Source: Caulobacteraceae bacterium
GTDB lineage: Bacteria; Pseudomonadota; Alphaproteobacteria; Caulobacterales; Caulobacteraceae
Reading direction: 5' to 3'
Assembly (NCBI GenBank): GCA_019747095.1
Contig: JAIERG010000029.1
Span: 1 to 42,537 of the forward strand
DNA length: 42,537 bases
The number at the start of each line of letters is the position of its first letter. The first letter of the stretch is position 1. The translations under genes were made by a program, and so were the position numbers. The notes under the pieces are model-generated. The model was not told where the DNA came from. It worked only from the letters and a program-made list of their open reading frames with translations, and made no database searches. Below are positions 5,824 to 25,435 of the stretch, piece after piece.

Positions 5824-7347
5824 ATGATGCGTTTTCTCCCCAAGAGACTTTGGTCCGTTCGGCGTCGCGTCGTCGCGATGTTGGCCATGATCTCTCTGGT
5901 GCTGGGCAGTGGTTTGGGCACCCTGGACCAGGTACGGGCCCAAGCCGGCGAAAACACGCGCTATGCCGCCATCGTCGTTGACGCCACGACCGGCGAAGTT
6001 CTGTTTGCTCGCCATGCTGACAGCCGTAGGTACCCCGCCTCCATCACAAAGGTGATGACGCTTTACCTCGCGTTCGAGGCGCTGGAACGGGGACAAGTGC
6101 GCCTCGACGACGTCATCACAGTATCTCCTCTCGCAGCCTCACAGCCGCCGTCCAAGCTTGGGCTGGCCGCCGGGCAGACGATTCGACTGGACGACGCCAT
6201 GCGCGCGACCGCAGTCCGTTCGGCCAATGACATGGCGGTTGTCATTGCCGAGCACATTGCCGGGTCTGAGGCGCGGTTCGCCTCCATGATGACGCTTAAG
6301 GCTCAAGAACTGGGCATGACGCAGACCCGCTACGTCAACCCAAACGGCCTGCCCGATAGCCGGCAGCTGACTTCGGCGCGCGACCTCGCGATCCTGGCCC
6401 GGGCAGTGATGCGCGACTACCCCCAGTATTACGCCTACTTCGGGCAGCACGACTGGGTGTATGAGGGGCGGGACTTTCGTAACACAAACGGTTTGCTGCA
6501 CTCAGGGAACGGTTACGACGGGATCAAGACCGGCTTCACCAACGCTTCGGGTTACAACCTAGCGGCATCCGCGGTTCGGGATGGACGCAGGTTGATCACC
6601 ATCGTCCTCGGCGGCCGATCGAGTGCAACTCGAAATGCGCACGTGGCGGAGCTGATGGATACCGGCTTTGAGGTCGAGCGTCGGCGCGCTGCCGGAGAGC
6701 GGATCCAGGTTGCGCAAGCCTTCTTCGAATCGCGAGGCTTTGGCATCGGCGGGCCGGACACAGGCGCGCCTGTGGCCTACGCGTCACTGAACGGCGCGCC
6801 TTCGACATCCGCAGACACCAGCCAGGGCTCCAACGCCGTGGCCTACGCCTCGCTTCCCGCTGCCTCCATCGTTACGCCCACAGCCGTCGCGAACACGCCA
6901 CCGGCAGGCTACACCCGGGCAACGCCCGTCGCGGCTGGGGCGACGCAGCGCGCTGAGGCCCCTGCGCCGCGTGCCGGGGGAAATCTGACGGCCAGCCTGA
7001 ACAGCGGCGTGACTGAAACAACCTCACTCAACCGTGGCACGACCGGAGCGAGTTCCCGCCCATCGGCCGCTGCCAACACGCGACCCACAGCCCCGGCGCG
7101 ACCAGCATCAGAACGTTGGAGCGTGCAGGTCGGCGCTTTCCGCGACGAGGGCGTGGCGCGGGATTGGCTCGCCGAGGTCAATCGCCGTTTCCGCAGTCAA
7201 TTCTCGAATGCTGAGCGCACCGTGGCCTCAGCGGCCGGGTGGCACAGGTCCCGCTTCACAGGGATGACCGAGGCGGCGGCGCGGGCAGCCTGCGACGCGC
7301 TCGATGCCCGGCGCGTCACCTGCATGGTGGTGCGGCCGGGCGGCTGA
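5824..7347 (+). CDS. D-alanyl-D-alanine carboxypeptidase (PBP5/6, peptidase S11) with C-terminal SPOR domain
   Basis: SxxK (PASITKVM), SAN motif (VRSANDMAVV), KTG (DGIKTGFT). C-terminal WSVQVGAFRDEGVARDWLAEV...C is SPOR-like. Confidence 0.92.
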   Translation: MMRFLPKRLWSVRRRVVAMLAMISLVLGSGLGTLDQVRAQAGENTRYAAIVVDATTGEVLFARHADSRRYPASITKVMTLYLAFEALERGQVRLDDVITVSPLAASQPPSKLGLAAGQTIRLDDAMRATAVRSANDMAVVIAEHIAGSEARFASMMTLKAQELGMTQTRYVNPNGLPDSRQLTSARDLAILARAVMRDYPQYYAYFGQHDWVYEGRDFRNTNGLLHSGNGYDGIKTGFTNASGYNLAASAVRDGRRLITIVLGGRSSATRNAHVAELMDTGFEVERRRAAGERIQVAQAFFESRGFGIGGPDTGAPVAYASLNGAPSTSADTSQGSNAVAYASLPAASIVTPTAVANTPPAGYTRATPVAAGATQRAEAPAPRAGGNLTASLNSGVTETTSLNRGTTGASSRPSAAANTRPTAPARPASERWSVQVGAFRDEGVARDWLAEVNRRFRSQFSNAERTVASAAGWHRSRFTGMTEAAARAACDALDARRVTCMVVRPGG

Positions 7348-7352
7348 CGGTC

Positions 7353-10300
7353 CTAGCGGATCTCGACGCGGCGGGCGTTCGCCGGGATCGCCAGATCATT
7401 TCCTGACCATGATGCCGCACGGCCATCGATGCGGACCCGTTGAGGCGGCGTTGCGTCTTCCGGCCAGCGAAGGACAAAGCCACCGGGCGGGGTGGCCGCG
7501 CCCAAGAGCGTCAAGGTCGCGACACCAGCCCGGCGGCGCAGGGTGAATGAAAGGTCGCCGTAGGGCGTGCGGATCCCACGCAGCCCGATACCAGTCGGGC
7601 TGTCGATCCAGCGCAGGGGTACGCCGGCGGCGAGGATCAAGGCGTTGTCGGTGTCGCGCTCATGCACGAACAGGTCGAGTGCCGAGCGGATGTAGTCCGA
7701 GCTGATCCATGCGTGGGGCATGTCGCCGATGAAGCGGGGCTCGCGCAAGTCGCGGCCGACGACCTCGGCCCAGCCGTTCCAGGCGGAGGGACGGCGGTCG
7801 GCGAAAAAGAAGTCGAGCGCCTCCAGCGCCCGGTCGCGATGGCCGAGGCGGACAAGGGCGCCGACGTTTCTGAGCTCGTAGGGGGTGTAGTCTTTCCACT
7901 GACTGCGGTTGGCGGCGCGGGCCTGGAAACTGGACCAGTAGCGGTCGAAGGTGTTGGTCAGCAGGTTCCGGGGCAGGTCAGACTGCAGGCCGCCAGGCGA
8001 CAGGCCGATGGTGGTCGAGGTGGCGTCGAAGTCGCCCCGGTCGGCCGCGCCCGCTATCCAGTCGATCCGGTGATGGGCGGCGGTCGCCTCGATGGAAGCG
8101 AGGACGTCGGTCAGGAACTCGCGCCGGGCGGCCTCGTAGCGGTCGGCGGCGGCGGTGTCGCCCAGCGTGCGGGCGATGAAGACGGCGTCGCGATAGCCGA
8201 GCAGGCCCCAGAAGTTGTCCCAGTTCGAGTATGCGGGCCGGTCGGAATAGCCCTCGTGGCTGATGGAGGGGGGCAGCAGGCCGTAGAGGTGGCGACGGCC
8301 GGGCGTCTGGTTCTCCGGCGTGCGGGTCTGGGCGCGCAGCTCGTCCATATAGCGAATAGCGCCCTGGACCTGCGGCCAGACGGCGCGGAGCTGGGTCTCG
8401 TCGCCGGTGTAGCGGAAGGTCTCGGCGGCGAGGAAGACGAACTCGCCGTGGCTGTCGTTCTCGGGCACGGGATCGGCCCCGCGCTGGTCGACGCAGCAGG
8501 GCACCTTGCCGTTGTCGAAAACGAAGGGGGCATACCAGGCGAGGTAGTCCTGGCTGAGGGCGGCGTGGCCCAGGCGGTTCAGCCCCTCGGCCATCATGGC
8601 CCCGTCGCGGATCCAGGAGCGGTTGTAGCTACGCGTGCCGGGCTGGAGGATCGGGCCCTGGCGCGACATCAGCATGTGGGCCAGCGAGGACTTCATCGTG
8701 TCCTCGATGCGCTGGGCTTCGGGCGGGAGGATCAGGTCGAAGCGGTCGAGCTTCTCGCGCCAGGTGGCCGCGATGCGCGACTGGACGGTGTCCAGCGCCG
8801 CCTCGACAGAGCCGGTCGCGGGCAAGGCTGGGCGGACGCCCGCCAGCGCCGTGACCCAGCCGATGGTGCGGGTCTCGCCGGGCTGGAGGGTCACCGTCCA
8901 GGTCAGGGCGCCGGACATCAGGCCGGTGCGGTCGGACTCGACCACGGCGTCGCGGGGCGCGTCGGGGCCTCGGGCAAGCAGGCTCTGCGGATCGGCGCCG
9001 GCGTGGAAGGTCGCCAGCCGCGCCTCGTCGGGCTGGACCAGGGGGCGGATGCGCAGGGCGTCGTTCAGGACCAGCTCGGCGCCGTTCCACTGGATTTGCT
9101 CCAGAGGCGAGGCCCCCCCGGGGACGGCGAGGAACTGGACCGGGCCGTTGACCTGCATGGGGCGGGCCATGAGGGCCAGCGTCAGGGTGCGCGGGCGCGG
9201 CGAGGTGTTGGTCAGGTCGTAGCGGCCGTAGAGCGACGCGGCGTCAGGCGAGCCTTCGGCCATGGCCGTGACCTTCAGCGTCCAATCGTCGTGGGTCCAG
9301 GTGACCGTCGGGATCGGCAGGTCGTCGTCGATCAGCGCTTGTTCGACCCGCGCGTCGGCCCAGATGACGACACGGCCGTTGTCCAGGACGAAGGGTTCAA
9401 TGGACGGGCCGCCGCGCTTCAGCTCGATGGCACCGTCCTCCGAGATCAGGCCGCTCTCGCCGCCGCCGTCGACGCCGACGAGGGTCCAGTAGGGCTGCTC
9501 GCCCCGGAAGCCGCGCGGATACAGGCCCCGGCGGCTGCGGTCGGCAATGGCGGTCAGGAAGGCGGTGCGGCTCTCGCCGAAGGACAGGGGCTCAATGCGC
9601 AGGTCGGCAAGGCCATAGACGGCGGTCGCGCCGTCGCGCGCGCCGAAGCCGGCGCCCATCTGGGCTGAGGCCGGAGTGGGCTGGGGTTCGATGAGGTCCA
9701 GGCGGAGCCAGCGGGCCGACGCCTCGGTGGTCATCAGCCAGTCCACGCCCCCGTTCGAGCCGTCGACGCGGGCCAGCTCGCGCCACTGGCGGCGGTCCGA
9801 CGAGGCCAGCAGGCGGTAGCGGGAGGCGGCGCGGCCCTCGACCCAGGTCAGGGTCAGGCCGCCGAACTCGCGTTCGTAGCCGAGGTCGAGCGTGAGGCTC
9901 TGGGCACCGGCGCCCTCGGTGACCCAGGCGGTGCGAGGGTCATCGTCCACGGCGAGCGCGGCGACGCTCTGGCCCTGTTCGCTCGACGCCTCGGCGATCG
10001 GACGCGGCGGGACGGAGGGCTCGGGCGGCAGGGTGCGCAGCGTCAGGTCGTCGATCTCGATGAAGCCCTGCCCGCCCTCCCCGGCCACGACGACGAACTC
10101 GATCCGCTCGGTGCCCCGGAAGGTGCGGTCCGGGTTGGGGCCCCAGGCCCAGACGATCTGGCGGCGCTTGATGATCACCTCGGTCCATTCGCCTGGGAAG
10201 TCGTAGCGGGTCAGCTGACGCCAATGGACGTTCTCGCCCGACGCATCGGTGAACTTGATCTCGAAGGTGTTGGTCGGCCCCTCGCCCCGGACGCGGAAGC

Positions 10301-10562
10301 GGATCTCGTAGTTGTCGGGGGCGTCGAACGACAGGGAGCGAGCGGCGAAGGCGTAGCCCGAGCGGCCGTTGAAGTCGTAGTCCAGCCGCATCGCTTGGCC
10401 GCGCGGGCCATTGACGGAACGGATCGTCGAGGTGACGTCGGTCGAGGCGTCGGCCGTCCAGGGCGACAGATCCTCGAAAGCGTCCAGCATGCGGGTGGAT
10501 TGGGCGTGGGCGACGCTCGCTGAGAGGAGCAGGATGCCGACCAGCGACGCCACGATACGCAT
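7353..10562 (-). CDS. Secreted multidomain six-hairpin glycosidase with N-terminal carbohydrate-binding-like and F5/8 type C domains
   Basis: Signal peptide MRIVASLVGILLLSASVAHAQ; lectin-like region (FRVRGEGPTNTFEIKFTDASGENVHW...); discoidin-like (SVAALAVDDDPRTAWVTEGAGAQSLTLDLGYEREFGGLTLTW); C-terminal (alpha/alpha)6-like region (SYNRSWIRDGAMMAEGLNRLGH...). Confidence 0.75.
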   Translation of the reverse strand: MRIVASLVGILLLSASVAHAQSTRMLDAFEDLSPWTADASTDVTSTIRSVNGPRGQAMRLDYDFNGRSGYAFAARSLSFDAPDNYEIRFRVRGEGPTNTFEIKFTDASGENVHWRQLTRYDFPGEWTEVIIKRRQIVWAWGPNPDRTFRGTERIEFVVVAGEGGQGFIEIDDLTLRTLPPEPSVPPRPIAEASSEQGQSVAALAVDDDPRTAWVTEGAGAQSLTLDLGYEREFGGLTLTWVEGRAASRYRLLASSDRRQWRELARVDGSNGGVDWLMTTEASARWLRLDLIEPQPTPASAQMGAGFGARDGATAVYGLADLRIEPLSFGESRTAFLTAIADRSRRGLYPRGFRGEQPYWTLVGVDGGGESGLISEDGAIELKRGGPSIEPFVLDNGRVVIWADARVEQALIDDDLPIPTVTWTHDDWTLKVTAMAEGSPDAASLYGRYDLTNTSPRPRTLTLALMARPMQVNGPVQFLAVPGGASPLEQIQWNGAELVLNDALRIRPLVQPDEARLATFHAGADPQSLLARGPDAPRDAVVESDRTGLMSGALTWTVTLQPGETRTIGWVTALAGVRPALPATGSVEAALDTVQSRIAATWREKLDRFDLILPPEAQRIEDTMKSSLAHMLMSRQGPILQPGTRSYNRSWIRDGAMMAEGLNRLGHAALSQDYLAWYAPFVFDNGKVPCCVDQRGADPVPENDSHGEFVFLAAETFRYTGDETQLRAVWPQVQGAIRYMDELRAQTRTPENQTPGRRHLYGLLPPSISHEGYSDRPAYSNWDNFWGLLGYRDAVFIARTLGDTAAADRYEAARREFLTDVLASIEATAAHHRIDWIAGAADRGDFDATSTTIGLSPGGLQSDLPRNLLTNTFDRYWSSFQARAANRSQWKDYTPYELRNVGALVRLGHRDRALEALDFFFADRRPSAWNGWAEVVGRDLREPRFIGDMPHAWISSDYIRSALDLFVHERDTDNALILAAGVPLRWIDSPTGIGLRGIRTPYGDLSFTLRRRAGVATLTLLGAATPPGGFVLRWPEDATPPQRVRIDGRAASWSGNDLAIPANARRVEIR

Positions 10563-10564
10563 AC

Positions 10565-11380
10565 TCAACCCTTCACGCTGCCCGCGAGCATGCCGCGGAT
10601 GTAGAACCTCTGGAGCGCCAGGAACAGCGCCAGGACCGGCGCCACGGTGATCACCGCGCCCGCCATCATCATCTCGATGTCCTGCACGTGCTCGCGCGAG
10701 AGGGCCGCGAGCGCCACTGGAAGTGTGTAGTTCGACTGATCCGTCAGGATGATGAGCGGCCACAGGAAGTCGTTCCAGCTGCCCAGAAAGACGAACAGGG
10801 CCAGCGTCACCACGATCGGAGTGAGCGTAGGCAGCACGATGCGGCGGAAGATCTGGCCCTCCGTCGCGCCATCGACGCGGGCGGCCTCCAGCATCTCGTC
10901 CGGAATCGACAGGGCGTATTGGCGGACGAGGAACAGGCCGAAGATGGAGGCCAGCCAGGGAACCAGGGCACCGGCGTAGGTGTTCACCAGGCCGACCGAC
11001 TTCAGCATCAGGAACAGCGGCAGGGTGCCGATCTGGGCGGGCACGACGAGCGCGGCGACCAGCAGCTGGAACAGGCGCTCGCGGCCGGCGAACCGCAGCT
11101 TGGCGAAGGCGTAACCGGCGGGGACGGTGAACAGAAGCGCCAGGCCGGTGGCCAGCGTCGCCAAGGCGAAGCTATTGAACACGTAGCGGCCCATACCGCG
11201 TTCGACGAAGAGCTCGCGGTAATGCTCCAGGGTGGGAGCGGACGGGATGAGCCGCGGCGGGAAGTTGGCGGCCTCCCCGCTCGACATCAGACTGACGGAG
11301 ACCATCCATGCGAGCGGAAACAGGACGATCAGGCCGATCGCGGTGACGCCGAGGTTCAGGAGGAAGTCGCGCGGCTTCAC
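10565..11380 (-). CDS. Carbohydrate ABC transporter permease (MalG-type)
   Basis: GTG start overlapping the preceding stop (GTGA). EAA-like motif DEMLEAARVDGATEGQIFRRIVLPTLTPIVVTLALF. Confidence 0.92.
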   Translation of the reverse strand: MKPRDFLLNLGVTAIGLIVLFPLAWMVSVSLMSSGEAANFPPRLIPSAPTLEHYRELFVERGMGRYVFNSFALATLATGLALLFTVPAGYAFAKLRFAGRERLFQLLVAALVVPAQIGTLPLFLMLKSVGLVNTYAGALVPWLASIFGLFLVRQYALSIPDEMLEAARVDGATEGQIFRRIVLPTLTPIVVTLALFVFLGSWNDFLWPLIILTDQSNYTLPVALAALSREHVQDIEMMMAGAVITVAPVLALFLALQRFYIRGMLAGSVKG

Positions 11381-12264
11381 GTGTGCTCTCCGCCGAGGCG
11401 GCGCGACACCGCGAGCTGGAGCATCGTCACCGCGAAGATGCAGACGAACAGGACGAAGGCTACAGCGCTGGCCGAGCCCAGGTTCCACCATTTGAAGCCC
11501 TCTTCGTACATGAAGTAGAGCACGGTCACGGTCGACTGGGCGGGGCCGCCCTGGGTCATCACATAGGGCTCGGCGAACAGCTGGAAGAAGCCCGCGACCG
11601 AGATGATGGACACGAGCAGGAGCGTCGGCGCGATGGCCGGGAGCGTCACGTGGCGGAAGCGGCTCCAGGGACCGGCGCCGTCGATGCGGGCGGCTTCGTG
11701 CAGCTCGTCAGGCACGGTCTGGAGGACCGCCAGGAAGATCAGCATGTTGTAGCCGAAGGTCTTCCACACCACGAACAGAAGGATGGCGGGGATGGAGGTG
11801 GAGGGGTCGCCCAGCCAGTCGACGGCGGGCAGGCCCAGCGACGTCAGCGCCCAGTTGATGACGCCGTAGCGGGTGTTCAACAGGTAGTTCCACAGCACCG
11901 CCGTGGCGACGAGCGTCGTCACGAAGGGGGCGAAGAAGATGACCCGCCAGATCGGCCGCCACTTCACCGCGCGGGCGTTCAGCAGCAGCGCGGCGCCCAG
12001 AGACGCCGCGATCGACAGGGGCACGCCAATGACGGCGAACAGCACCGTGTTCTTCATCGCCTGCCAGAACAGGGGGTTGCCCAAGAGACGTGTGTAGTTC
12101 TCCAGCCCGATCCAGCGCAGGTTCGACAGGTCCGCCAGCGCATAGATGTCGAAGTCGGTCAGACTGAGCAGCAGCGACGAAACGACCGGCACCACGAAGA
12201 AGACCGCCAGAGCGATCAGGGCCGGCGCGATGAAGCCCCAGGCGGCGCGTTCGCGGCTCGTCAC
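11377..12264 (-). CDS. Carbohydrate ABC transporter permease (MalF-type)
   Basis: EAA motif DELHEAARIDGAGPWSRFRHVTLPAIAPTLLLVSIISV, multiple TM segments. Confidence 0.92.
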   Translation of the reverse strand: MTSRERAAWGFIAPALIALAVFFVVPVVSSLLLSLTDFDIYALADLSNLRWIGLENYTRLLGNPLFWQAMKNTVLFAVIGVPLSIAASLGAALLLNARAVKWRPIWRVIFFAPFVTTLVATAVLWNYLLNTRYGVINWALTSLGLPAVDWLGDPSTSIPAILLFVVWKTFGYNMLIFLAVLQTVPDELHEAARIDGAGPWSRFRHVTLPAIAPTLLLVSIISVAGFFQLFAEPYVMTQGGPAQSTVTVLYFMYEEGFKWWNLGSASAVAFVLFVCIFAVTMLQLAVSRRLGGEHT

Positions 12265-12267
12265 TGT

Positions 12268-12429
12268 CCTTCTCCCCTTGCGGGAGAAGGTGGCCCGGAG
12301 GGCCGGATGAGGGGTGAAAGGAAATGCCTCCGGTGGACAGCCGACCGCTCCCTCAACGCCAACCGCCGAGATTCACCCCTCATCCGACCTCGCTGCGCTC
12401 GGCCACCTTCTCCCGCAAGGGGAGAAGGG
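12268..12429. repeat. Long inverted-repeat element (REP/palindromic intergenic repeat type)
   Basis: Left arm ccttctccccttgcgggagaaggtggcccggagggccggatgaggggtgaa, right arm ttcacccctcatccgacctcgctgcgctcggccaccttctcccgcaaggggagaagg; each outer arm also holds a smaller hairpin. Confidence 0.85.
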
Positions 12430-12442
12430 CGTTGATGCTCGA

Positions 12443-13702
12443 TCATCCCCGCCCCCGATCAAGCATCCAGCGGCGCTTTTCCAGAAGGCGATCGGCGCGG
12501 CGGTCGATCTCGGCGGCGGCCTGGGGCACGGTGAACTCGCCACGCACCATGCGCTCGGCGACGATCTGCATCTCGGTGACGATGCGTTCCCACTCGGGCA
12601 CCTTGGGCACGGCCTTGGCGCGGTCCAGTTGGCCGCCGAAGGCGGTGACGTAAGGGTCGGACGCCACCTTCGGCGCGGACCAGGCCGAAGGCCTGGCTGG
12701 CAGGCTGCCGGTGATGACGTTGAACTCGGCCTGGACCGCTGGATCGGACAGGTAGCGGACCAGCTTCCACGCCGCCTCCGGGTTCAGCGAGGAGCGGAAG
12801 ACGGCGAGCGACGATCCGCCGGGGGCCGAAGCGCCGGGTCCGGTCGGGCCGGGCACGCCGGCGGTGGTCCAGTGCGGCTGAATTTCTGGCGGCAGGCGGC
12901 TCTTCATGTCGCCGATGGTCCAGGGACCGGAGAAGTAGAAGCTGAACCAGCCGCGCGCGAACTCGGTCCAGACGTTGGAGATCTGCGACGCCGAGGCGAC
13001 GGGGGCGAGGCCCTCGTCGAACAGGCTCTTGTAGAAGGCGAGCGCGGCCTGAAACGACGGACTGGAAAAGTTTCCCCGGGTCGCCTCATCCCGAAGCAAC
13101 GGTTGATCGCCCTGAAGTCCGAAGGTCAGAAGCTGCTCGAACTCATTGAGCGGCAACAGGATCGCGTAGCGGTCGGGGCCGACGCTTCGCTTGACCGCCT
13201 GCATGGCCGCCTTCCAGTCCGCCCAGGTGGTCGGCATGGCCTCGTAGCCCGCTTGGGCCAGGAGGTCGGTGCGATAAAAGATCAGGCGGGTGTCGACATA
13301 CCAGGGCGTGGCGACGGCGCGGCCGTCGATACGGTTGGTGTCGAGCACGGCCGGGAACTGGTCGGTCAGGAGGTCCGAAGCCGCGTCCGGCATGGGCGAC
13401 AGGGCTCCAATGGCGGCCATTTCCGCCACCCAGGTGTTGCCGATCTGGCTAACGTCCGGCAGCGAGTTACCTGCGTAGGCGGTGAGCAGTTTCTGGTGCG
13501 CAGCCGTCCACGGCTGGGGCTGAACCTCGACCCGTATGCCCGGATTAGCCGCCTCGAAGGCCGGGATCAGTCGGGGAACATTGGTCCCCTCGTTGCCCAT
13601 CGCCCAGAAGGTCAGGCGAGTAATGCCGTCGTCTCGCCCGCAGCCCGCCAGAGCTGCACCGGCTCCGGCCATCAGTCCCATCGCCGCCCGGCGGTGGATC
13701 AT
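12443..13702 (-). CDS. ABC transporter sugar-binding lipoprotein (family 1 solute-binding protein)
   Basis: Lipobox MIHRRAAMGLMAGAGAALAGC; ITRLTFWAMGNEGTNVPRLIPAFEAANPGIRVEVQPQPW. ATGA overlap with the upstream gene stop. Confidence 0.92.
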   Translation of the reverse strand: MIHRRAAMGLMAGAGAALAGCGRDDGITRLTFWAMGNEGTNVPRLIPAFEAANPGIRVEVQPQPWTAAHQKLLTAYAGNSLPDVSQIGNTWVAEMAAIGALSPMPDAASDLLTDQFPAVLDTNRIDGRAVATPWYVDTRLIFYRTDLLAQAGYEAMPTTWADWKAAMQAVKRSVGPDRYAILLPLNEFEQLLTFGLQGDQPLLRDEATRGNFSSPSFQAALAFYKSLFDEGLAPVASASQISNVWTEFARGWFSFYFSGPWTIGDMKSRLPPEIQPHWTTAGVPGPTGPGASAPGGSSLAVFRSSLNPEAAWKLVRYLSDPAVQAEFNVITGSLPARPSAWSAPKVASDPYVTAFGGQLDRAKAVPKVPEWERIVTEMQIVAERMVRGEFTVPQAAAEIDRRADRLLEKRRWMLDRGRG

Positions 13703-15123
13703 GCGTTCAGCCATCCGCCGGTGAAGCCGGCTGCTTCCAGCCCCCGGCGCAGGTTCGGCTCCTCGCGCATGTATCGCCAGACCAGGTCGGTGCGGGCATT
13801 CTCGATCATCACGACGATCGGCCCTTGGTCGATGCCGAGATAGTCGCCGTCGACCCAGCCGACGCCAGGCACGATGCGGCCGTGCTGAAGCCGCCCTTCC
13901 CGCTCGCTCAGAGTCGGGTTGAAGCTGTCGAGGAAGCCGTACTCGGTGTAGATCGCCTCGCCGTAGCGGGCCTTCATAGCCTTCAGGCAGGCAGTGACGG
14001 GCTCCGGCGCGAAGGGGTAGCTGGCCATGGCGGCGGTGGGCGCGATCGTCCCGTCGTCGCGGTCGCCGGGGCCGCGCGCGGAATAGCTGAAGAACTCCCG
14101 TTCGCGGGCGTCGATGACCTGTTTGAAGTCGCCCGGCCCGTCGCAGGCCGTCAGGCCCCAGACATCGGCGGAATAGCCATCCCAGCCGCCGGGATTGTCG
14201 GTCGCATAGTTGCGCTGCGCCTGAACGGCACGGACGCTGTTCTCGAAATAGTCGAACGGGCCGATCTCGGCGGATTTGGCACGCATCCAGGGATCGCGGA
14301 TGCCGCGATAGTCGACGAACATGTGGCTGTACTGGTGCCCGAACAGCGGCGGGAAGTGCAGGTGGGCGGGCCCGTAGGCGTCGGTCCAGCTGCGGTCGTA
14401 GACGCTGCACCACTCGGTCCAGACGGCGGGCGAGACGGGGTTGGTCCGGCTGCCCATGGCCAGCAGCAGCACCAGCATGCCCTCGTTGTAGACGTGCCAG
14501 TCCGCCTCGATGAAGCCGGTCTCCGGGTGCCAACCCATGCTGATGCGGTTCGGGCGGACAACGACCCAGTCCCACTCGACGCGGTCGTAGATGGCCTGGG
14601 CCAGACGGCGGATCTCGGCCTCTTCGACGTGGGCCTGATCGAAATAACGGGCGGCGAAGAGCATGCCTCCGAGCAGCAAGGTGGTGTCGACGGTCGACAA
14701 CTCCGTGCGGCCAAAGCGGTGGCCGGAGCCCATCTCCAGGAAGTGGTAGAAAAAGCCCTTGTAGCCGGTCATGCCGGTCGCGTCGGGGCCCTGGGGCGCG
14801 TCGTGGAAAAATCGCAGGGTGTTCAGCGTCCGCGCCCTCGCCTCCTCTCGGCTCATCCAGCCGTTCTCGACTCCGACGGGCCAGCAGGTGAGCGCGAAAC
14901 CGACGGCAGCGACCGAGCAGAACGACTCTGTCGGCCAGCGATCCGGCGTCAAGCCGCGCTCGATGTCGGTGACCCGCACGAACCAGTCGAAGGTACGTCG
15001 TTGAAGCTCCACCACCTCGGGGTCGAGGGGGCGGGCCGCTCCGCCTTGAGGCAGAGACGCGCAGCCGCTGCCCATGAGGGCGGCCAGAGCGCCCGAAGCC
15101 ATCAGAAATCCGCGACGATCCAT
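13699..15123 (-). CDS. Glucoamylase family protein (PF10091 type; GH144-like)
   Basis: RRTFDWFVRVTDIERGLTPDRWPTESFCSVAAVGFALTCWPVGVENGWMSREEARARTLNTLRFF...MTGYKGFFYHFLEM...STVDTTLLLGGMLFAARYF are hallmarks of the PF10091 family. Lipoprotein signal MASGALAALMGSGC. Confidence 0.9.
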   Translation of the reverse strand: MDRRGFLMASGALAALMGSGCASLPQGGAARPLDPEVVELQRRTFDWFVRVTDIERGLTPDRWPTESFCSVAAVGFALTCWPVGVENGWMSREEARARTLNTLRFFHDAPQGPDATGMTGYKGFFYHFLEMGSGHRFGRTELSTVDTTLLLGGMLFAARYFDQAHVEEAEIRRLAQAIYDRVEWDWVVVRPNRISMGWHPETGFIEADWHVYNEGMLVLLLAMGSRTNPVSPAVWTEWCSVYDRSWTDAYGPAHLHFPPLFGHQYSHMFVDYRGIRDPWMRAKSAEIGPFDYFENSVRAVQAQRNYATDNPGGWDGYSADVWGLTACDGPGDFKQVIDAREREFFSYSARGPGDRDDGTIAPTAAMASYPFAPEPVTACLKAMKARYGEAIYTEYGFLDSFNPTLSEREGRLQHGRIVPGVGWVDGDYLGIDQGPIVVMIENARTDLVWRYMREEPNLRRGLEAAGFTGGWLNA

Positions 15124-15156
15124 CTCGTCCCTTCTACGCCAACGCCCCCGCGTTAC

Positions 15157-15194
15157 AAAAAGGATGGCCGCCCCTTCGCGAGGAAGGGGCGGCC
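15157..15194 (-). terminator. Rho-independent terminator-like hairpin downstream of the TonB receptor
   Basis: Minus strand: GGCCGCCCCTTC-ctcgc-GAAGGGGCGGCC-atccTTTTTg, 12-bp perfect stem plus T run. Confidence 0.85.
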
Positions 15195-15211
15195 AGTCTC
15201 AGGAGGTGAAA

Positions 15212-18200
15212 TCAGAAGACGTAGCGCAGACCCAACTGGAAGCTCTGGGTCGGCACGAACTGTGCCGTCGGCGTGCCGAACAGCGGGTTCGGACGACGCA
15301 GCGCGGGGTTGTTCCCGTCCAGGTTGATCGTCTGGTTGTATCCGGAGTAGTTGCGGAAGTTGAACACATTGATTGCGTCCAGCGTCAGCTCCATCCGGGT
15401 GCCGTTCCACAGCTCGAACGGCCGTGCCAGACGCAGGTCGACCTGGCGGTAGGCGAAGTTCAGACCCGGCAGGAAGGCGCGCTTCTCGGGGAAGTAGGCA
15501 TTCCACTCGATGGGAGCGCCCGTAATCCCCGGGAAGCCGGTGAAGGGGCGGCCCGAGCCCAGGGTCACGATGGACGACAGCCGGAAATCGTAGGGCAGAC
15601 GAACGGTGCCCGAGGCCACGATGCGATGCCGCTCGACGCCGGCTAGATTGTAGAAGGGGCTCAGCGCCACGGTGGCATAGTCGAAGTCAAAGTTGCCCGT
15701 GCCGTCACCACGGCTGCCGTTCTGCTCGCCGTCAGCCAAGGTGTAGGCGATGTTGAAACCATAGCCCGACTCTTCCGTGTAGGGGCGGTCGATCGTCAGG
15801 TACATCGCCATGTACTCGCGCTCACGGTTGTGATCGGAGTAGAAGATGCTGTCGTTGAAAGCGTAGGGCTGGCCCGTCGCCGGGTTGGTGAACTGGCTTG
15901 GCCGGACCGTGATCTGATTGGCGTTATTGACGTTGAGGCGCGACCACTGGAACTCGTTCTCGGTCTTGGCATACGAGAACGTCAGAGCCGTCTGAATGTC
16001 CCAGAACTTCTGGCGGATCCCGATGTTGAACTGATCCGTGCGCGGCGGCGGGGCATTGTTGTTGACGAGGAAGATCTCACCGCGCCCCTGGGTACCACCC
16101 AGCAGCGCGTCCAGGCCGCCCGGCGTGGCATAGGACGGGTTCCACGCCACTGTGTTCGCCTGGCCGCCGAACGCACCGCCATTCGGCGAGAAAAAGATCG
16201 TCCGGGTGAGCTGGAACGGCTTGTAGCGCTCGTCGAACGCAAAGTTGAAGGCGATACGGTCGTAGTAGCGACCGGCACCGGCGAACAGGACCGTGCGCTC
16301 GTCGCCGAAGACATCATACGACAGGCCGATCCGGGGCTGGAAGGCTTCGGTGAAGGCGTCCCGACCACTGGTCGTGATGTAGTCATTCACATTGACCTGA
16401 GCGACGTAGTTCGGGTCGGCCACCACCCGGGCGAGCACGTCACGAACCACCTGCGGCGTGGCGTAGTCGTTGTTTACGGCATTGTCTTCATAATCCCAGC
16501 GCAGGCCGAGGTTCAGTTCGAGGCGATCCGTGATCTGCCAGTCATCCTGGATGTACAGCCCCAGAACATTGTTCTCGGCACGGGTCGCCTCGACCGGCAG
16601 GTTCAGGAAGACGCGCGTGGGGATCGTCGAGGACCCCAGGATCGAGGGATTGGCATTGATGTCGTAGGTGAACTGCGGGTTCCGGTTGAACTGCTTGTCC
16701 ACGTAGTACTCCTGCATGGAGTACTTGATGCCCATCTTGATGGTGTGGGACCCCATCCACTCGAAGTTGGTGAATGTCAGGTCGTTGCGGAAGGTCAGGC
16801 TTTCCTGCTCGATGTCCTGGTTGTTCGACCCGCCACCCCGGCTGAAGACGGTAGCCTCGGTCTGGTTGTAGTCGAACTGGAACCCGGCAGCGGTCGCACT
16901 GGCGTCACGATAGATGACGTAGGTTTGGCCAGGATCGGTGAAGTTCGCCGCCCTCGGGTTATAGACAGAGTTCAGATAATCGATCGAAAACTCGTTCAGG
17001 AAGCTGTCACCCTGATACTGGTGGCGGAAGACGACGCTGATGGTTTCCCCATTGATTTCGGTCGCACGCGTCCGGTCCGTCGGGCCGTTGCCGAAGTCAC
17101 GAAGATCCTGCTCGGTACGGTAGGTCGTGGACAGATCAACGAGCTGACGATCGTCGATCTGCCAGGACAGCTTGCCGAAGAACAAATCCTGCTCGAACGG
17201 CGCGGGGAAGGTGCCCAGACGGTCTGCGAACTGCGGCGCAAACTCGGTGCGGTTCAGGAACACCTGACGCTCGCGCGTCTCATCCTTGCGCTCGTAGCTC
17301 AGGAAATAGTGTAGCCGATCCTCGATGATCGGGCCGCCAACCGATCCCCCGTACTGCAGACGCTCCAGCGGGGCCTGCGGACGGCCCGCGCGAATGCCGA
17401 AGACGTCCTGGGCGATGAAGTCACTGGGCTGATAGTAGACGAACAGATCGCCAGAAAGATCATTTGTACCTGAGCGTGTGACCGAGGTGATGATGGCCGA
17501 CGAGGCCTGCTCGTACTCGGCCTTGAAGTTCTGGGTCAGGACCCGGAACTCTTGAACCGCGCTCTGCGGGAAGGGGTTGCCACGGCTGTCATCCTGGCCG
17601 GCGATACCTCCGTCCAGAATCGTCGACTTCTGGCTCTGGCCGTCGATGAACACATTGACCGCCAGCGAGGGTTGGCCACCGGCCGAGATCGTGCGTTCGG
17701 TGTCGCCTTCCTGGACGACCACGCCCGGTGCCAGGGCCGCGAAGTTCAGGAAGTTGCGGCTGATCTGCGGCAAATCTTCAATCTGCTGGCGCATGACGTT
17801 GGTAGCGACCTCAGATGTCCGCACTTCGAAGATACGACGACCGGTGACAACGATGTCGCCCAGCTGGGTGGCATCAGCGTCTAAAGCGGCCGTTCCACCA
17901 CCGACATCTAGGTCCAGCGTACCGACCTGACCGAGACCTAGGGTGATCGTATCAGTCGCTGTCTGGCCGTCAGCGCTCGTGACCGTCACCTCGTAGGTAC
18001 CGGGACGAAGACCGACGAGCACGTAGGCTCCATCGGCGGCCACCGAGGCTCGGCTGGTGTAGCCCGTCGAGGTATTGCGAGCGACGACAAAGCCGCCAGG
18101 CTCCAGCGCAGCGCCCTCGTACACCGTTCCCCTGAGAGTGGATGTGGTGTTCTGCGCCACGGCGGACCCCGCCCCGGCGATCGTTGTTGCTAGGGCGATG

Positions 18201-18247
18201 GCCGATGCCGCAGCCAAGGCGCGACTACGCGTAGTGAAGCGGTTCAT
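15212..18247 (-). CDS. TonB-dependent receptor with N-terminal carboxypeptidase-regulatory-like domain
   Basis: Signal peptide; STLRGTVYEGAALEPGGFVVARNTSTGYTSRASVAADGAYVLVGLRPGTYEVTVT; plug IVVTGRRIFEVRTSEVATNVMRQQIEDLPQISRNFLNFAALAPGVV; C-terminal aromatic beta-barrel end (QLGLRYVF). Confidence 0.93.
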   Translation of the reverse strand: MNRFTTRSRALAAASAIALATTIAGAGSAVAQNTTSTLRGTVYEGAALEPGGFVVARNTSTGYTSRASVAADGAYVLVGLRPGTYEVTVTSADGQTATDTITLGLGQVGTLDLDVGGGTAALDADATQLGDIVVTGRRIFEVRTSEVATNVMRQQIEDLPQISRNFLNFAALAPGVVVQEGDTERTISAGGQPSLAVNVFIDGQSQKSTILDGGIAGQDDSRGNPFPQSAVQEFRVLTQNFKAEYEQASSAIITSVTRSGTNDLSGDLFVYYQPSDFIAQDVFGIRAGRPQAPLERLQYGGSVGGPIIEDRLHYFLSYERKDETRERQVFLNRTEFAPQFADRLGTFPAPFEQDLFFGKLSWQIDDRQLVDLSTTYRTEQDLRDFGNGPTDRTRATEINGETISVVFRHQYQGDSFLNEFSIDYLNSVYNPRAANFTDPGQTYVIYRDASATAAGFQFDYNQTEATVFSRGGGSNNQDIEQESLTFRNDLTFTNFEWMGSHTIKMGIKYSMQEYYVDKQFNRNPQFTYDINANPSILGSSTIPTRVFLNLPVEATRAENNVLGLYIQDDWQITDRLELNLGLRWDYEDNAVNNDYATPQVVRDVLARVVADPNYVAQVNVNDYITTSGRDAFTEAFQPRIGLSYDVFGDERTVLFAGAGRYYDRIAFNFAFDERYKPFQLTRTIFFSPNGGAFGGQANTVAWNPSYATPGGLDALLGGTQGRGEIFLVNNNAPPPRTDQFNIGIRQKFWDIQTALTFSYAKTENEFQWSRLNVNNANQITVRPSQFTNPATGQPYAFNDSIFYSDHNREREYMAMYLTIDRPYTEESGYGFNIAYTLADGEQNGSRGDGTGNFDFDYATVALSPFYNLAGVERHRIVASGTVRLPYDFRLSSIVTLGSGRPFTGFPGITGAPIEWNAYFPEKRAFLPGLNFAYRQVDLRLARPFELWNGTRMELTLDAINVFNFRNYSGYNQTINLDGNNPALRRPNPLFGTPTAQFVPTQSFQLGLRYVF

Positions 18248-19290
18248 GGTCTCTCTCCTGAAAAGCCCGGGGTGGAGTTTGTGGTCCCGCACGACTGGCG
18301 AACAACCAGCCGGGGGACGATGATTTCGCGCTCAGCATCGTTTGCGGCCTGCGGCCGAGCCGCGTCGCCACGTTCAATCTCGGTGATCAGACGCTCGACA
18401 GCGCGACGTCCCATGCCGACGATATCGATGTTGAGGGTGGTCAGGCCGGGCCGAACCAGTTCGGCGATCGGCACATCGTCGAAGCCGACGACCGCGACGT
18501 CATCGGGGCAGCGCAGACCGGCTTCCTGGATCGCCAACAACGCCCCGATAGCCATGGCATCATTGCCGGCAAAGATCGCATCGAGCGTACGGCCGGATGC
18601 CAGAACCGCAGCAGTCGCAGCGAAACCGCTGGCTTGGGTGAACTCACCCTGGGCTAGGATCGGCTCCCGGCCGGCGAGAGCGATCGCCTCCAGGTAGCCC
18701 TGCTTGCGCTGCCGCGCCTCGACGTTTCCGGCGGGACCACCGATATGAACAATGTGGCGACGTCCCATGGCCAAAAGGTGCTCAACGGCGGCGCGGGCAC
18801 CGCCGGCGTTGTCAACCGCCATTGAGGGTTGCCGCCCATCAAGGTCCGCACCGTTCATGAGCAGAACCGGAAGACGGCCTGCCAAGCTGCCTGTCAACTC
18901 GCCTGAGTCCAGATGCGGCGACAGGACGATGAGGCCATCCACCCTGCCCCGCATGGAACGGATCGCCGCCGCCGCAACTGCGGCGTCATCGTGCGAGCTC
19001 GACACGATCAAGTGTCGTCCCTGCTGGCGACAGGCCACATCCATGCCGCGGATGAGTTCGGAGAAAAACTCGCCGAAAAGGTCAGGCAAGATCACGCCCA
19101 CGACGTCCGTCCGATTCGTCGAAAGGCTGCGTGCGCCGGAGTGCGGCACATATGACAAAGCCTCGACGGCCTCGAGCACCCTGGAGCGCGTAGGCTCCGC
19201 GACCACGCCTGCCCCGGTCAGGACGCGTGAAACCGACGCCACAGATACGCCGGCCCGTTCAGCAACATCACGGATGGTCGCCGCCTTCAT
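18244..19290 (-). CDS. LacI family transcriptional regulator
   Basis: MKAATIRDVAERAGVSVASVSRVLTGAGVVAEPTRSRVLEAVEALSYVPHSGARSL HTH plus periplasmic-binding-like domain. Stop overlaps the TonB receptor start (ATGA). Confidence 0.96.
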   Translation of the reverse strand: MKAATIRDVAERAGVSVASVSRVLTGAGVVAEPTRSRVLEAVEALSYVPHSGARSLSTNRTDVVGVILPDLFGEFFSELIRGMDVACRQQGRHLIVSSSHDDAAVAAAAIRSMRGRVDGLIVLSPHLDSGELTGSLAGRLPVLLMNGADLDGRQPSMAVDNAGGARAAVEHLLAMGRRHIVHIGGPAGNVEARQRKQGYLEAIALAGREPILAQGEFTQASGFAATAAVLASGRTLDAIFAGNDAMAIGALLAIQEAGLRCPDDVAVVGFDDVPIAELVRPGLTTLNIDIVGMGRRAVERLITEIERGDAARPQAANDAEREIIVPRLVVRQSCGTTNSTPGFSGERP

Positions 19291-19401
19291 CGGCGCAACC
19301 CGTTCACGCGGTCGGATATCTGCGGGAGCAGAAGGCCCAAGTCCTGTGTCCTGAAACGTTCCTACCGTTCCAGCCGTCTTGGCAACGGTCTGTCGGCTCT
19401 C

Positions 19402-19415
19402 TGTAATCGGTTACA
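19402..19415. promoter_or_regulatory. Candidate LacI-family operator
   Basis: TGTAATCGGTTACA, near-perfect dyad with central CG, about 110 bp upstream of the lacI-type start codon. Confidence 0.5.
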
Positions 19416-19501
19416 TGGCACAGCCATCAGCGGCCCCGCAAGGGCCAAGATTTCGCCACAAGGAAAAAACTGCGGGTTGCGGCCTCGCGGCCACGTCGGC
19501 G

Positions 19502-21013
19502 TCAGGGTCTGACACGACCGTAGTAGGCCTCGATCAGATCCAGCCTCCGGCGGTTCGGGACATCGACGACACGCGGCCCATCATTGGTGAACTCAAGGAT
19601 CTGATCTCCGACAGCTTGCGGCCATGGGACACCAGTGGCGGCCCTGGGGACGCCCGTCGTCGCGAACCCGACCCAGTACTCTGCCATGAGATTCGCCGCC
19701 GCCTGATCCCGCGCCTGCATCGGTCGGCCGACGGTATGGAGATTGTCGAACACGTAGGGCCGCTCCGACGCATGGGTTGCTCCGCCGCTAGGCTCCGGAT
19801 TGGAGGCGGCCACGACGTCAAACCGATACTGCCAGGTCGGATGGCCGGCGTTCAGGTGCAGGCGGGCCAGATGACGCGCCGGCTCATTGAAGACCAGATC
19901 GCTCACGATAGAGGCCTCATACCCGGCGCGCCCGTCGTAGGCTTCGATGAGGGAATCGTACTCCTCATCGAGAAGGGCATCATCGAGTCGCCCATAGGCT
20001 CCGGCGTCCGTCGGTCGAATCCACCAGAACTCGGCGCTGTTCGTACCGATAATCAGAGGAACCGGTGCCTGCCGCCCGGCCGCGAAGGCTTGAACAACGT
20101 CTTCTGGGACGACATGCCCGTCCACAAGGAGATTGTCGGAATAAAACGCAGGAGCCGGAGACAGGAACCTTTCGGGAGGAAGGGCCCGCAACTGCTGGGC
20201 CGTCGCATCCGGGAGCCCTGCGGATCTCGCAAACTGCGCTCCCAGCGACTGGGCGGACGGGCGACCCGGACGATCTTCGGTCAGCAGCGCGGACCGTTGC
20301 CGGCCCATTCCCGATTGCACGATTACCCCTCGAAACAGGCCACGCGCGGCGGGCGAGACCATGAGCTGGGTCGCCGCAACTCCGCCGGCGGACTCGCCGA
20401 AGATCGTGACCTGACCAGCATCTCCCCCAAAGGCGGCAATATTGTCGCGCACCCATTCAAGGGCCGCGATCTGGTCCATGACGCCATAGTTGCCGCCCGG
20501 CTCTGTGCCAGGACGCTCCGCCGCAAGGGCGGGATGGTCAAAAAAGCCTAGCCGTCCCAGCCGGTAGTTGATCGTTACCACGACGACCCCACGCCGGGCC
20601 AGATTGGACCCGTCATAGAGAGCCGCCGTACCCGACCCGTTGTTGTATCCACCGCCATGGATCCAAAGCAGGACTGGCAGGCGGTCCGCATCCGCAGGGG
20701 CCCAGACGTTCAGCGTCAGGCAGTCCTCGCTCATCGGTGGCGGGCCAACCCCCGGATCGCCGTTTGCAGGCGGCTGAACGCAGATCGCCCCGGGCACGTT
20801 CGCTGGACGAGTGCCTGCCCATGACAGGGCCGGCTGAGGGGGACGCCAACGCAACGAACCTACGGGCGCGGCCGCATAGGGGATCCCCTGAAAGGATACG
20901 ACACCCCCTTCAAGCCGCCCGGAGAGCCTTCCCTGCTGGACCTCGATTTCGGGCGCGTCACGCGGCGGCGATGACAGCAGGGACATTCCGAACACCAGGA
21001 CCGCAAGCGACAT
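19502..21013 (-). CDS. Type B carboxylesterase/lipase family protein
   Basis: EDCLTLNVWAPADADRLPVLLWIHGGGYNNGSG...GDAGQVTIFGESAGGVAATQL: classic carboxylesterase motifs. Start ambiguous (21013 or 21070). Confidence 0.93.
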   Translation of the reverse strand: MSLAVLVFGMSLLSSPPRDAPEIEVQQGRLSGRLEGGVVSFQGIPYAAAPVGSLRWRPPQPALSWAGTRPANVPGAICVQPPANGDPGVGPPPMSEDCLTLNVWAPADADRLPVLLWIHGGGYNNGSGTAALYDGSNLARRGVVVVTINYRLGRLGFFDHPALAAERPGTEPGGNYGVMDQIAALEWVRDNIAAFGGDAGQVTIFGESAGGVAATQLMVSPAARGLFRGVIVQSGMGRQRSALLTEDRPGRPSAQSLGAQFARSAGLPDATAQQLRALPPERFLSPAPAFYSDNLLVDGHVVPEDVVQAFAAGRQAPVPLIIGTNSAEFWWIRPTDAGAYGRLDDALLDEEYDSLIEAYDGRAGYEASIVSDLVFNEPARHLARLHLNAGHPTWQYRFDVVAASNPEPSGGATHASERPYVFDNLHTVGRPMQARDQAAANLMAEYWVGFATTGVPRAATGVPWPQAVGDQILEFTNDGPRVVDVPNRRRLDLIEAYYGRVRP

Positions 21014-21135
21014 GGATGCAATCCTAATCGCTGAGGTCCGCTCGGCAATGCTCGCCGACCTTCTGGCCACTTGGGATGATCTGGATTAGGGCTCGGCGGG
21101 CATGGTGGGTTGGCCGCGACGCAGGGACAGTTTTC

Positions 21136-21513
21136 ATGACCACAGGCCTGGAAGGACGCCGCGTCCTGGTCGTTGAAGACGAGTCCCTTGTCGCCCTGTT
21201 GCTGGAAACGATTCTGGAAGACATGGGGTGCTCGTCTATCGGCCCCGCAGGAACGATCGAGGAAGCACTGCAGCTTGTCTCCACCACATCCTCGCTCGAT
21301 GGCGCACTGTTGGATGTCAACGTCGCCGGGAGGGTCGTTTTCCCGGTAGCCCAAGCGCTGGCTGAGCGGGAGATCCCATTCGTCTTCTCCACCGGCCATG
21401 GTGCGGGCGGTCTACCCGATGAGTGGCGAGGCCGTCCGACAATCCAAAAGCCCTTTACAGAGGCTTCCGTCCGGGACTCTCTGCTCGGCGCGCTCGGCAT
21501 CAGCCGGGCTTGA
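21136..21513 (+). CDS. Single-domain response regulator receiver
   Basis: RRVLVVEDESLVALLLETILEDMGC...GALLDVNVAG...FVFSTGHG...IQKPFTEASV: receiver domain with no output domain. Confidence 0.9.
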   Translation: MTTGLEGRRVLVVEDESLVALLLETILEDMGCSSIGPAGTIEEALQLVSTTSSLDGALLDVNVAGRVVFPVAQALAEREIPFVFSTGHGAGGLPDEWRGRPTIQKPFTEASVRDSLLGALGISRA

Positions 21514-24695: not shown

Positions 24696-25435
24696 CGCGC
24701 GCTCGGCAGACGATCATAGGCCTGAGCCTTGCTGTCCTGATCGTGGCCGGCTGGGTGACGCTGCACGTGTGGGGCGTCTTCCTTCAACCCCTGGAAAGGC
24801 CGGCGCTTTTCGTCGCGCCCGTTCTCATCCTGATCCAGAGCTGGCTGGGAGCGGGCATGTTTATTGTCGCTCACGACGCCATGCACGGGTCACTGGCCCC
24901 GGGCCGGCCACGCGTGAACGCTGTGGTCGGCCAGATCTGCGTAGGAGTCTATGCCGCCTTCTCGTATCGCAAGCTGAACGTCTGCCATCATCAGCATCAC
25001 CGGGCACCCGGCACGGCCGACGATCCAGACTTCCATGCACATCGGCCCGAGGCCTTTCTGCCGTGGTTCTACAGCTTCTTCACCCGCTACTTCGGCTGGC
25101 GTGAGTTCTCGATCGTGACGGCTGTGCTGATCGCATATCTGCTGATCGGCGCTTCAGTGGCCAATCTGGCTCTGTTCTGGGGCCTGCCCGCGATCCTCAG
25201 TGCACTTCAACTGTTCGTGTTCGGGACATGGCTTCCCCATCGTCACACCCAGAGTGACGGGTTTGTCGACCATCACAACGCGCGCACGATCGCGATGCCC
25301 TGGATCGCCTCGCTACTGACCTGCTTTCACTTCGGGATGCACCACGAGCACCACCAGACACCATCTGCACCTTGGTGGCGGCTGCCCGAGGTTCGGCGAG
25401 AAACGCTCAGACGCGCGTCCAGAGCGGGGGCCTGA
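24692..25435 (+). CDS. crtW: Beta-carotene 4-ketolase CrtW
   Basis: HDAMHGSLAPGRPRVN, CHHQHHRAPGTADDPDFH, HHEHHQTPSAPWWRLP. GTG start overlaps the crtZ stop (GTGA). Confidence 0.95.
   Translation: MTRARQTIIGLSLAVLIVAGWVTLHVWGVFLQPLERPALFVAPVLILIQSWLGAGMFIVAHDAMHGSLAPGRPRVNAVVGQICVGVYAAFSYRKLNVCHHQHHRAPGTADDPDFHAHRPEAFLPWFYSFFTRYFGWREFSIVTAVLIAYLLIGASVANLALFWGLPAILSALQLFVFGTWLPHRHTQSDGFVDHHNARTIAMPWIASLLTCFHFGMHHEHHQTPSAPWWRLPEVRRETLRRASRAGA

What the first reader, a model, noticed from the sequence alone, without database searches (positions are those of the whole stretch)
7353..19290. Hybrid TonB + ABC glycan-utilisation locus, hypothesised to act on beta-1,2-glucan (sophorooligosaccharides)
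A contiguous minus-strand set encodes LacI regulator, TonB receptor, PF10091 'glucoamylase', sugar-binding lipoprotein, MalF/MalG-type permeases and a large secreted glycosidase, mostly with ATGA/GTGA overlaps. The PF10091 family includes GH144 endo-beta-1,2-glucanases, and solute-binding proteins for beta-1,2-glucooligosaccharides are known elsewhere. Outer-membrane TonB import coupled to an inner-membrane ABC importer and a GH144-like enzyme is an unusual combination. A role in scavenging rhizobial-type cyclic or linear beta-1,2-glucan is testable.
Basis: partly seen in the sequence, partly recalled or inferred. Interest (0 to 1): 0.6.

Follow-up and report, generated by a model that had tools for sequence, protein, structure and literature searches.

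The report
β-1,2-glucan uptake and breakdown locus
A set of genes in a Brevundimonas-type bacterium almost certainly captures and digests a rare sugar polymer, β-1,2-glucan; the same gene set is widespread in related bacteria and in Xanthomonas relatives, and it carries one large secreted enzyme of no described family that is worth testing.

Summary
The locus is real. The 13699-15123 product is a close homologue (495 bits over the catalytic domain) of XCC2207/XcSGL, a GH144 enzyme shown elsewhere to act on β-1,2-glucan, and it keeps the residues that define that clan. Besides a Xanthomonas protein of unknown ligand, the binding protein's best solved match is Lin1841, the Listeria sophorooligosaccharide binder. 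Relatives carry GH1 or GH3 β-glucosidases and a MalK-type ATPase beside the locus. In this genome the operator TGTAANCGNTTACA occurs exactly twice, before the LacI gene and before an unlinked GH3 β-glucosidase, so regulation ties them together. The substrate guess is therefore well supported by sequence, though not by assay. The 'unusual' TonB + ABC pairing is not unusual: the same gene order recurs across Brevundimonas, other Caulobacterales and Xanthomonadaceae, and a TonB + ABC + GH144 pathway was already proposed for Ignavibacterium. The most interesting part is the 1069-aa secreted protein at 7353-10562: no curated catalytic family, found only with GH144 in 200 Caulobacterales genomes, GH94/GH15/GH65-like fold, activity unknown. 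The cytoplasmic hydrolase for imported sugars was not found in this 94%-complete genome.

The parts
18244..19290 (-). LacI-family regulator, first gene of the operon, probable repressor of the locus
   Evidence: Pfam LacI 2.7e-15, Peripla_BP_3 2.4e-32; conserved operator 112 nt upstream of its start codon
19402..19415 (-). Palindromic operator TGTAACCGATTACA (consensus TGTAANCGNTTACA)
   Evidence: One of only two sites in the 3.0-Mb genome, the other immediately before the GH3 gene on contig C227; 100 sites in 106 related loci vs 0.02 expected, 99 of them near the start of a locus gene
15212..18247 (-). TonB-dependent (Oar-like) outer-membrane receptor, 1011 aa, for the glucan or its oligosaccharides
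   Evidence: Pfam OMP_b-brl_4 2.5e-63, TonB_dep_Rec 6e-9, CarboxypepD_reg; overlaps the LacI stop by 4 nt
15165..15195 (-). Terminator-like hairpin (13 pairs plus T run) in the receptor/GH144 gap, probably a partial terminator setting receptor above the other products
   Evidence: 66 of 106 related loci have one at this junction, 0-3 at the other junctions, shuffled about 0.7
13699..15123 (-). GH144 endo-β-1,2-glucanase, Tat-like lipoprotein signal (Cys21), 474 aa; E214 acid, D146 base candidate, F261, Y347
   Evidence: phmmer 494.6 bits to 8XUL XCC2207/XcSGL; key residues invariant in 80/80 relatives; PMC12102758
12443..13702 (-). Sugar-binding lipoprotein of the ABC importer, probable sophorooligosaccharide binder, 419 aa
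   Evidence: PDB 3UOR 470 bits, Lin1841 5YSB 207 bits, next 122 bits
12261..12435 (.). Palindromic, MITE-like repeat sitting in the binding protein/MalF gap
   Evidence: 35-nt arms 91% complementary, fold z -9.3; gap is only about 6 nt in the close relative L003
11377..12264 (-). MalF/UgpA-type permease (GTG start)
   Evidence: Pfam BPD_transp_1 5.4e-20
10565..11380 (-). MalG/UgpE-type permease (GTG start)
   Evidence: Pfam BPD_transp_1 2.1e-18
7353..10562 (-). Large secreted protein (1069 aa): Sec-type signal, CBM11-like module, CBM32/F5-8C module, β-sandwich + (α/α)6 catalytic region of no curated family
   Evidence: Pfam; AF2 pLDDT 85, pTM 0.79 (full) and 0.88 (domain); Foldseek; always with GH144
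19502..21070 (-). Secreted carboxylesterase, neighbour in 39 of 60 full-length loci; possible but unproven accessory
   Evidence: Pfam COesterase 8e-103

Best explanation
This is a LacI-controlled β-1,2-glucan utilisation operon. Inferred working: long or cyclic β-1,2-glucan crosses the outer membrane through the TonB-dependent receptor; the periplasmic GH144 lipoprotein cuts it internally into sophorooligosaccharides; the large secreted enzyme removes what GH144 leaves or cannot cut; the binding lipoprotein hands oligosaccharides to the MalFG-type permease, driven by a MalK/MsmX-type ATPase made elsewhere in the genome; a co-regulated periplasmic GH3 β-glucosidase (contig C227, next to an MFS sugar porter) finishes part of the material to glucose. 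Oligosaccharide binding releases LacI from TGTAANCGNTTACA. Shown here by sequence: gene identities, family membership of the GH144 enzyme, operator distribution, gene linkage. Inferred: substrate, direction of transport, order of steps, repressor mode.
For: GH144 product 494.6 bits to XcSGL (8XUL), which hydrolyses β-1,2-glucan and was inactive on the other polysaccharides seen in its Table 1 (PMC12102758). XcSGL E239/F286/Y367 map to E214/F261/Y347, and D146 sits at the base-candidate position; all invariant in 80 relatives. Binding protein: Lin1841 is the best match of known ligand, 207 vs 122 bits for the next. Operator: two exact sites in 3.0 Mb (about 0.03 expected; reversed control 0), before LacI and before GH3. 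That GH3 is 81% identical to the GH3 beside the GH144 locus of L010, and the C168 ATPase is up to 79% identical to locus-linked ATPases. GH1 or GH3 β-glucosidase genes sit in the locus of many relatives. Listeria and Streptomyces clusters with a Lin1841-type binding protein, ABC permeases and GH3 or GH1 are described as metabolising sophorooligosaccharides (PMC12369401).
Against: No biochemical data for this locus. No GH1 and no GH94 was found in the genome, and the second GH3 looks like NagZ, so the enzyme that would use imported oligosaccharides in the cytoplasm is missing, possibly because the assembly is 94% complete. GH144 also holds an exo-acting member (PMC12369401), so endo action is inferred from XcSGL. 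Three related loci lack the receptor (L101-L103), so it is not essential to the system everywhere.
Confidence: 0.86

Rival explanations
1. Starch/maltodextrin (or other α-glucan) locus: a Mal-type system whose PF10091 member is a true glucoamylase, as the family name and the 'MalE' name of the Xanthomonas homologue suggest.
For: Pfam name 'Putative glucoamylase'; MalF/MalG-type permeases; the X. citri homologue 3UOR is named MalE, with binding specificity listed as unknown (PMC7676653).
Against: The nearest characterised PF10091 enzyme is a β-1,2-glucanase specific for that glucan. NCBIfam MalE and MalFG models match far below cut-off. Linked accessory enzymes are GH1/GH3 β-glucosidases.
Confidence: 0.03
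2. Self-recycling: the locus reclaims the cell's own periplasmic β-1,2-glucans rather than foreign glucan.
For: β-1,2-glucan is the core of many osmoregulated periplasmic glucans (PMC11842490).
Against: No OpgG/OpgD (PF04349) in this genome and only one PF10091 gene, so no sign of a cyclic glucan synthase carrying that domain; a TonB receptor is for import from outside. A missing gene in a 94% complete assembly is possible.
Confidence: 0.06
3. The target is a decorated or α-1,6-cyclised β-1,2-glucan (Xanthomonas/Ralstonia/Rhodobacter type), with the large enzyme acting on the α-1,6 bridge or on a substituent and the esterase removing acyl groups. This is a special case of the best explanation.
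For: The large enzyme is kept with GH144 in Caulobacterales and Xanthomonadaceae; 9 of 34 members weakly match the amylo-α-1,6-glucosidase model (best 8e-6) and GH15 is among the Foldseek matches; such cyclic glucans exist in Xanthomonas (PMC11228985).
Against: Foldseek ranks β-acting GH94 enzymes first for the catalytic region and weak rhamnosidase-type matches are commoner (25 of 34), so the fold does not choose the anomer. Some GH144 loci lack the enzyme. No substrate evidence.
Confidence: 0.15

Closest known systems
XcSGL (XCC2207, PDB 8XUL), GH144, Xanthomonas campestris
   Same: Same catalytic domain and clan-defining residues; a relative 923 bits from it sits in the same gene order in Xanthomonadaceae locus L104
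   Different: XcSGL has an added, disordered C-terminal region; activity of the Brevundimonas protein not tested
Ignavibacterium album IALB_1177-1187 cluster (PMC8861115)
   Same: GH144 enzymes, Lin1841-type binding protein/ABC importer and a proposed TonB-dependent transporter for β-1,2-glucan
   Different: Has GH94 and GH35 enzymes, which are absent from this locus (GH94 from the genome too; GH35 was not searched for in the genome); presence of the large enzyme there was not examined
Streptomyces griseus SGR_2422-2427 cluster (PMC12369401)
   Same: Lin1841-type binding protein, permeases, β-1,2-glucanase, β-glucosidase, an esterase
   Different: No outer membrane, glucanase is GH193, β-glucosidase is GH1
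Listeria innocua Lin1839-1841 cluster
   Same: Sophorooligosaccharide ABC binding protein with a GH3 β-glucosidase
   Different: Uses a GH94 phosphorylase; no TonB receptor (Gram-positive)
GH94 / GH15 / GH65 / GH116 enzymes (for the large protein)
   Same: β-sandwich plus (α/α)6 barrel, Foldseek E down to 1e-17, TM about 0.5-0.6 for the best
   Different: About 9-15% identity, no family model over cut-off; catalytic residues not established

Membership tests
GH144 | PF10091-type (α/α)6 enzyme grouping with GH144 members rather than other clan families | tested here: met
   Best solved match is GH144 XcSGL at 494.6 bits, then other PF10091 proteins incl. endo-β-1,2-glucanase 5GZH (106 bits); 8XUK (H744_1c0222), another clan member, only 32 bits. 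dbCAN not available.
GH144 | Clan residues E239, F286, Y367 (XcSGL numbering) | tested here: met
   E214, F261, Y347; invariant in 80/80. 8XUL has Gln at the acid position, taken as an inactive mutant because relative L104 has Glu
GH144 | Acidic residue at the CpSGL E142 base-candidate position | tested here: met
   D146 in S-T-V-D-T-T, aligned with VD/VE in solved homologues; mapping to CpSGL inferred from the motif
GH144 | Hydrolysis of β-1,2-glucan | not testable with these tools
   Needs purified protein
Sophorooligosaccharide-binding protein (Lin1841 type) | Closest to Lin1841 among binding proteins of known ligand | tested here: met
   207 bits vs 122 for GacH and lower for the rest
Sophorooligosaccharide-binding protein (Lin1841 type) | Conserved ligand-contact residues and measured binding | not tested
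   Contact list of Lin1841 not available in the library; no assay
Carbohydrate ABC importer (MalEFGK type) | Two permeases, binding protein and ATPase | tested here: met
   Permeases and binding protein in the locus; ATPase on contig C168, up to 79% to locus-linked ATPases; that it serves this importer is inferred
TonB-dependent receptor | TonB-receptor barrel | tested here: met
   PF00593 and PF25183 over cut-off
TonB-dependent receptor | Plug domain | tested here: inconclusive
   No separate Pfam plug match; CarboxypepD_reg N-terminus as in Oar-like receptors
GH94 (large protein) | Match to the GH94 family model | tested here: not met
   No GH94 model among matches of 34 members; a genome search with PF17167 finds nothing, so not this protein either
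GH133/GDE_C or GH78 (large protein) | Match over the curated cut-off | tested here: not met
   Window protein: GH78-type model 13 bits vs cut-off 24.5; GDE_C only weakly in 9 of 34 members

The most novel reading that the evidence does not exclude
The 1069-aa secreted protein is a first recognised member of an undescribed glycoside hydrolase family that is a standard component of β-1,2-glucan loci in Caulobacterales and Xanthomonadaceae, acting on a part of natural β-1,2-glucans that GH144 cannot handle, such as chain ends, substituents or the α-1,6 bridge of cyclised forms.
Probability: 0.45. Interest if true: 0.62.

Novelty: new variant of a known kind. Interest (0 to 1): 0.42.

Why it matters
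β-1,2-glucans are signals and virulence or symbiosis factors, yet how Gram-negative bacteria consume them is described only in pieces. Here the pieces fall into one conserved, co-regulated system with a defined operator. It gives a likely ligand for the solved but unassigned X. citri 'MalE' (3UOR), whose close relative is encoded beside a GH144 gene in a Xanthomonadaceae locus, and it points to one unclassified enzyme that can be expressed and assayed directly.

Tried and rejected
Starch/maltodextrin reading of the PF10091 'glucoamylase' name: rejected on homology and neighbours. GH144 with chance neighbours: rejected, the gene order recurs in most of 106 related loci. Local ATPase and GH1 in this locus: not there, searched for in the genome instead (ATPase found, GH1 not). 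Cyclic glucan synthase or OpgG/D in the genome (self-recycling): none found. Foldseek against viral proteins for the large enzyme: mostly carbohydrate-binding modules, uninformative. Sequence-profile search of solved structures with the large enzyme's catalytic region: nothing significant. Rfam on 7000-21500: nothing. Promoter consensus scan: nothing above shuffles. Papers naming the guessed X. citri/X. campestris locus tags: none in the library; the 3UOR paper is not held.
Full report
What is there. The window is contig C232 of a 3.0-Mb, 94%-complete assembly. Its GH144 protein is 92-93% identical to those of Brevundimonas sp. AAP58, a B. subvibrioides MAG and B. bacteroides, so the genome is taken as Brevundimonas or a close neighbour (inference; the genome itself is unnamed). 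Three junctions overlap by 4 nt; the others are gaps of 2, 88 and 178 nt.

The enzyme. The 474-aa product has a twin-arginine-like lipoprotein signal (MDRRGFL...GSGC). phmmer gives 494.6 bits to 8XUL, XCC2207. That protein, XcSGL, is classed as GH144 and hydrolyses β-1,2-glucan but not the other polysaccharides seen in Table 1 of the paper (PMC12102758). The residues that paper uses to define the clan, E239, F286 and Y367, fall at E214, F261 and Y347 here; a 14-residue offset in the PDB chain was worked out by counting, and the chain carries Gln at the acid position, which I take to be an inactive mutant because the relative in L104 has Glu there. D146 sits at the position of the proposed base. 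All four are invariant in 80 relatives.

The binding protein. Its best solved match is 3UOR, X. citri MalE (470 bits), whose binding specificity is listed as unknown in PMC7676653. Next is Lin1841 of Listeria (207 bits), a shown binder of Sop3-5 (PMC12369401), well ahead of maltose or acarbose binders (122 bits and less). In Xanthomonadaceae locus L104 a close relative of 3UOR (732 bits) is encoded directly after a close relative of XCC2207 (923 bits). This suggests that X. citri MalE is a sophorooligosaccharide binder; that is inference, not shown.

The rest of the pathway. The locus has no ATPase gene. A MalK/MsmX-type ATPase lies on contig C168 and is up to 79% identical to ATPases found next to the locus in 24 of 60 full-length loci. 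A GH3 β-glucosidase with a signal-like N-terminus lies on C227 beside an MFS sugar porter and is 81% identical to the GH3 beside the locus of B. variabilis (L010). Many relatives have GH1 between the esterase and LacI; this genome has no GH1, no GH94, and its only other GH3 has NagZ-like sequence (family recalled from motif). The cytoplasmic fate of imported oligosaccharides is therefore not explained here.

Regulation. A palindrome, TGTAANCGNTTACA, lies 112 nt before the LacI start. In the whole genome it occurs at two places only: here and at C227:30808-30821, between the MFS gene and the start of GH3. About 0.03 would be expected from composition and the reversed control has none. In 106 related loci there are 100 sites against 0.02 expected, all but one near the start of a LacI, GH1, GH3, ATPase, receptor or GH144 gene; 76 of 99 LacI genes have one within 300 nt. 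This makes a single LacI regulon the simplest reading and ties an unlinked β-glucosidase to the locus independently of gene order. Binding of this LacI to the site is inferred from position and symmetry.

Operon fine structure. A 13-pair terminator-like hairpin follows the receptor gene. Such a hairpin is found at this junction in 66 of 106 loci and in 0-3 at other junctions, so a conserved partial terminator that favours receptor expression is likely. A palindromic repeat element sits between the binding-protein and MalF genes and appears to be a lineage-specific insertion, since the gap is about 6 nt in L003.

How unusual is the combination. Of 60 loci longer than 20 kb, 59 have the receptor, 57 the ABC genes and 51 the large enzyme with GH144. 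GH144 occurs in 79 of 150 Xanthomonadaceae genomes, and 19 of 20 loci fetched there have LacI, receptor, GH144, binding protein, MalF, MalG and large enzyme in this order. Some Sphingomonad loci (L071, L073, L080, L082) have LacI and GH144 with GH3 but no ABC genes. A GH144 + TonB + ABC pathway was proposed for Ignavibacterium album (PMC8861115). So the hybrid is a common arrangement, and the idea of it is not new.

The large enzyme. It has a Sec-type signal, a CBM11-like module, a CBM32/F5-8C module, and a catalytic region without any Pfam match over cut-off; members match rhamnosidase-type (25 of 34) and amylo-α-1,6-glucosidase (9 of 34) models weakly. AlphaFold2 gives a mostly confident β-sandwich plus (α/α)6 barrel. 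Foldseek matches GH94 phosphorylases, GH116, GH15, GH65 and GH95 enzymes, at TM about 0.4-0.6 and about 12% identity. In 200 Caulobacterales genomes it occurs in 16, all with GH144, and in none of the 178 without (Fisher p 4e-19; related genomes are not independent). Invariant acids include D653, E701, D703, E770, D782, D844, D846, E896, E933 and D947. D782 as acid and E933 as base would match the layout of GH15 as I recall it, but E933 lies in a low-confidence stretch of both models, so this is a lead only. Fold alone does not tell α from β. I hold that it acts on β-1,2-glucan-derived material and, with less confidence, that it handles something GH144 cannot.

Verdict. The β-1,2-glucan interpretation is right at the level that sequence can show. 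The combination is common rather than unusual. The new items are the regulon with its operator, the conserved intra-operon hairpin, the likely ligand of X. citri MalE, and the unclassified companion enzyme.

Noticed in passing
window 12261-12435: MITE-like palindromic repeat (35-nt arms, 91% complementary) in the binding protein/MalF gap; a gap of similar size (about 182 nt) is seen in L004 but not in L003, so it looks like an insertion inside the operon.
   Followed up: partly
window 15165-15195: Terminator-like hairpin conserved at the receptor/GH144 junction in 66 of 106 loci, including loci with a differing stem sequence.
   Followed up: yes
L104:9520-12278: Relatives of XCC2207 (GH144) and of solved X. 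citri MalE (3UOR) are neighbouring genes, so 3UOR is probably a sophorooligosaccharide binder rather than a maltose binder.
   Followed up: partly
window 19502-21070: Secreted carboxylesterase before LacI in 39 of 60 full-length loci; the S. griseus β-1,2-glucan cluster also has an esterase. It might remove acyl groups from glucans.
   Followed up: no
L077:6751-9876: A second, divergent copy (about 33% identical) of the large enzyme next to the locus in a Lysobacter genome, apparently without the CBM11-like module.
   Followed up: no
L101, L102, L103: Caulobacterales loci with LacI, GH144, ABC genes and large enzyme but no recognisable receptor gene between LacI and GH144.
   Followed up: no
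window 36930-39518: 862-aa ORF with no Pfam match at E 1e-6.
   Followed up: no
window 25407-29004: Ordinary carotenoid genes (phytoene synthase, amine-oxidase-type desaturase, lycopene cyclase).
   Followed up: no
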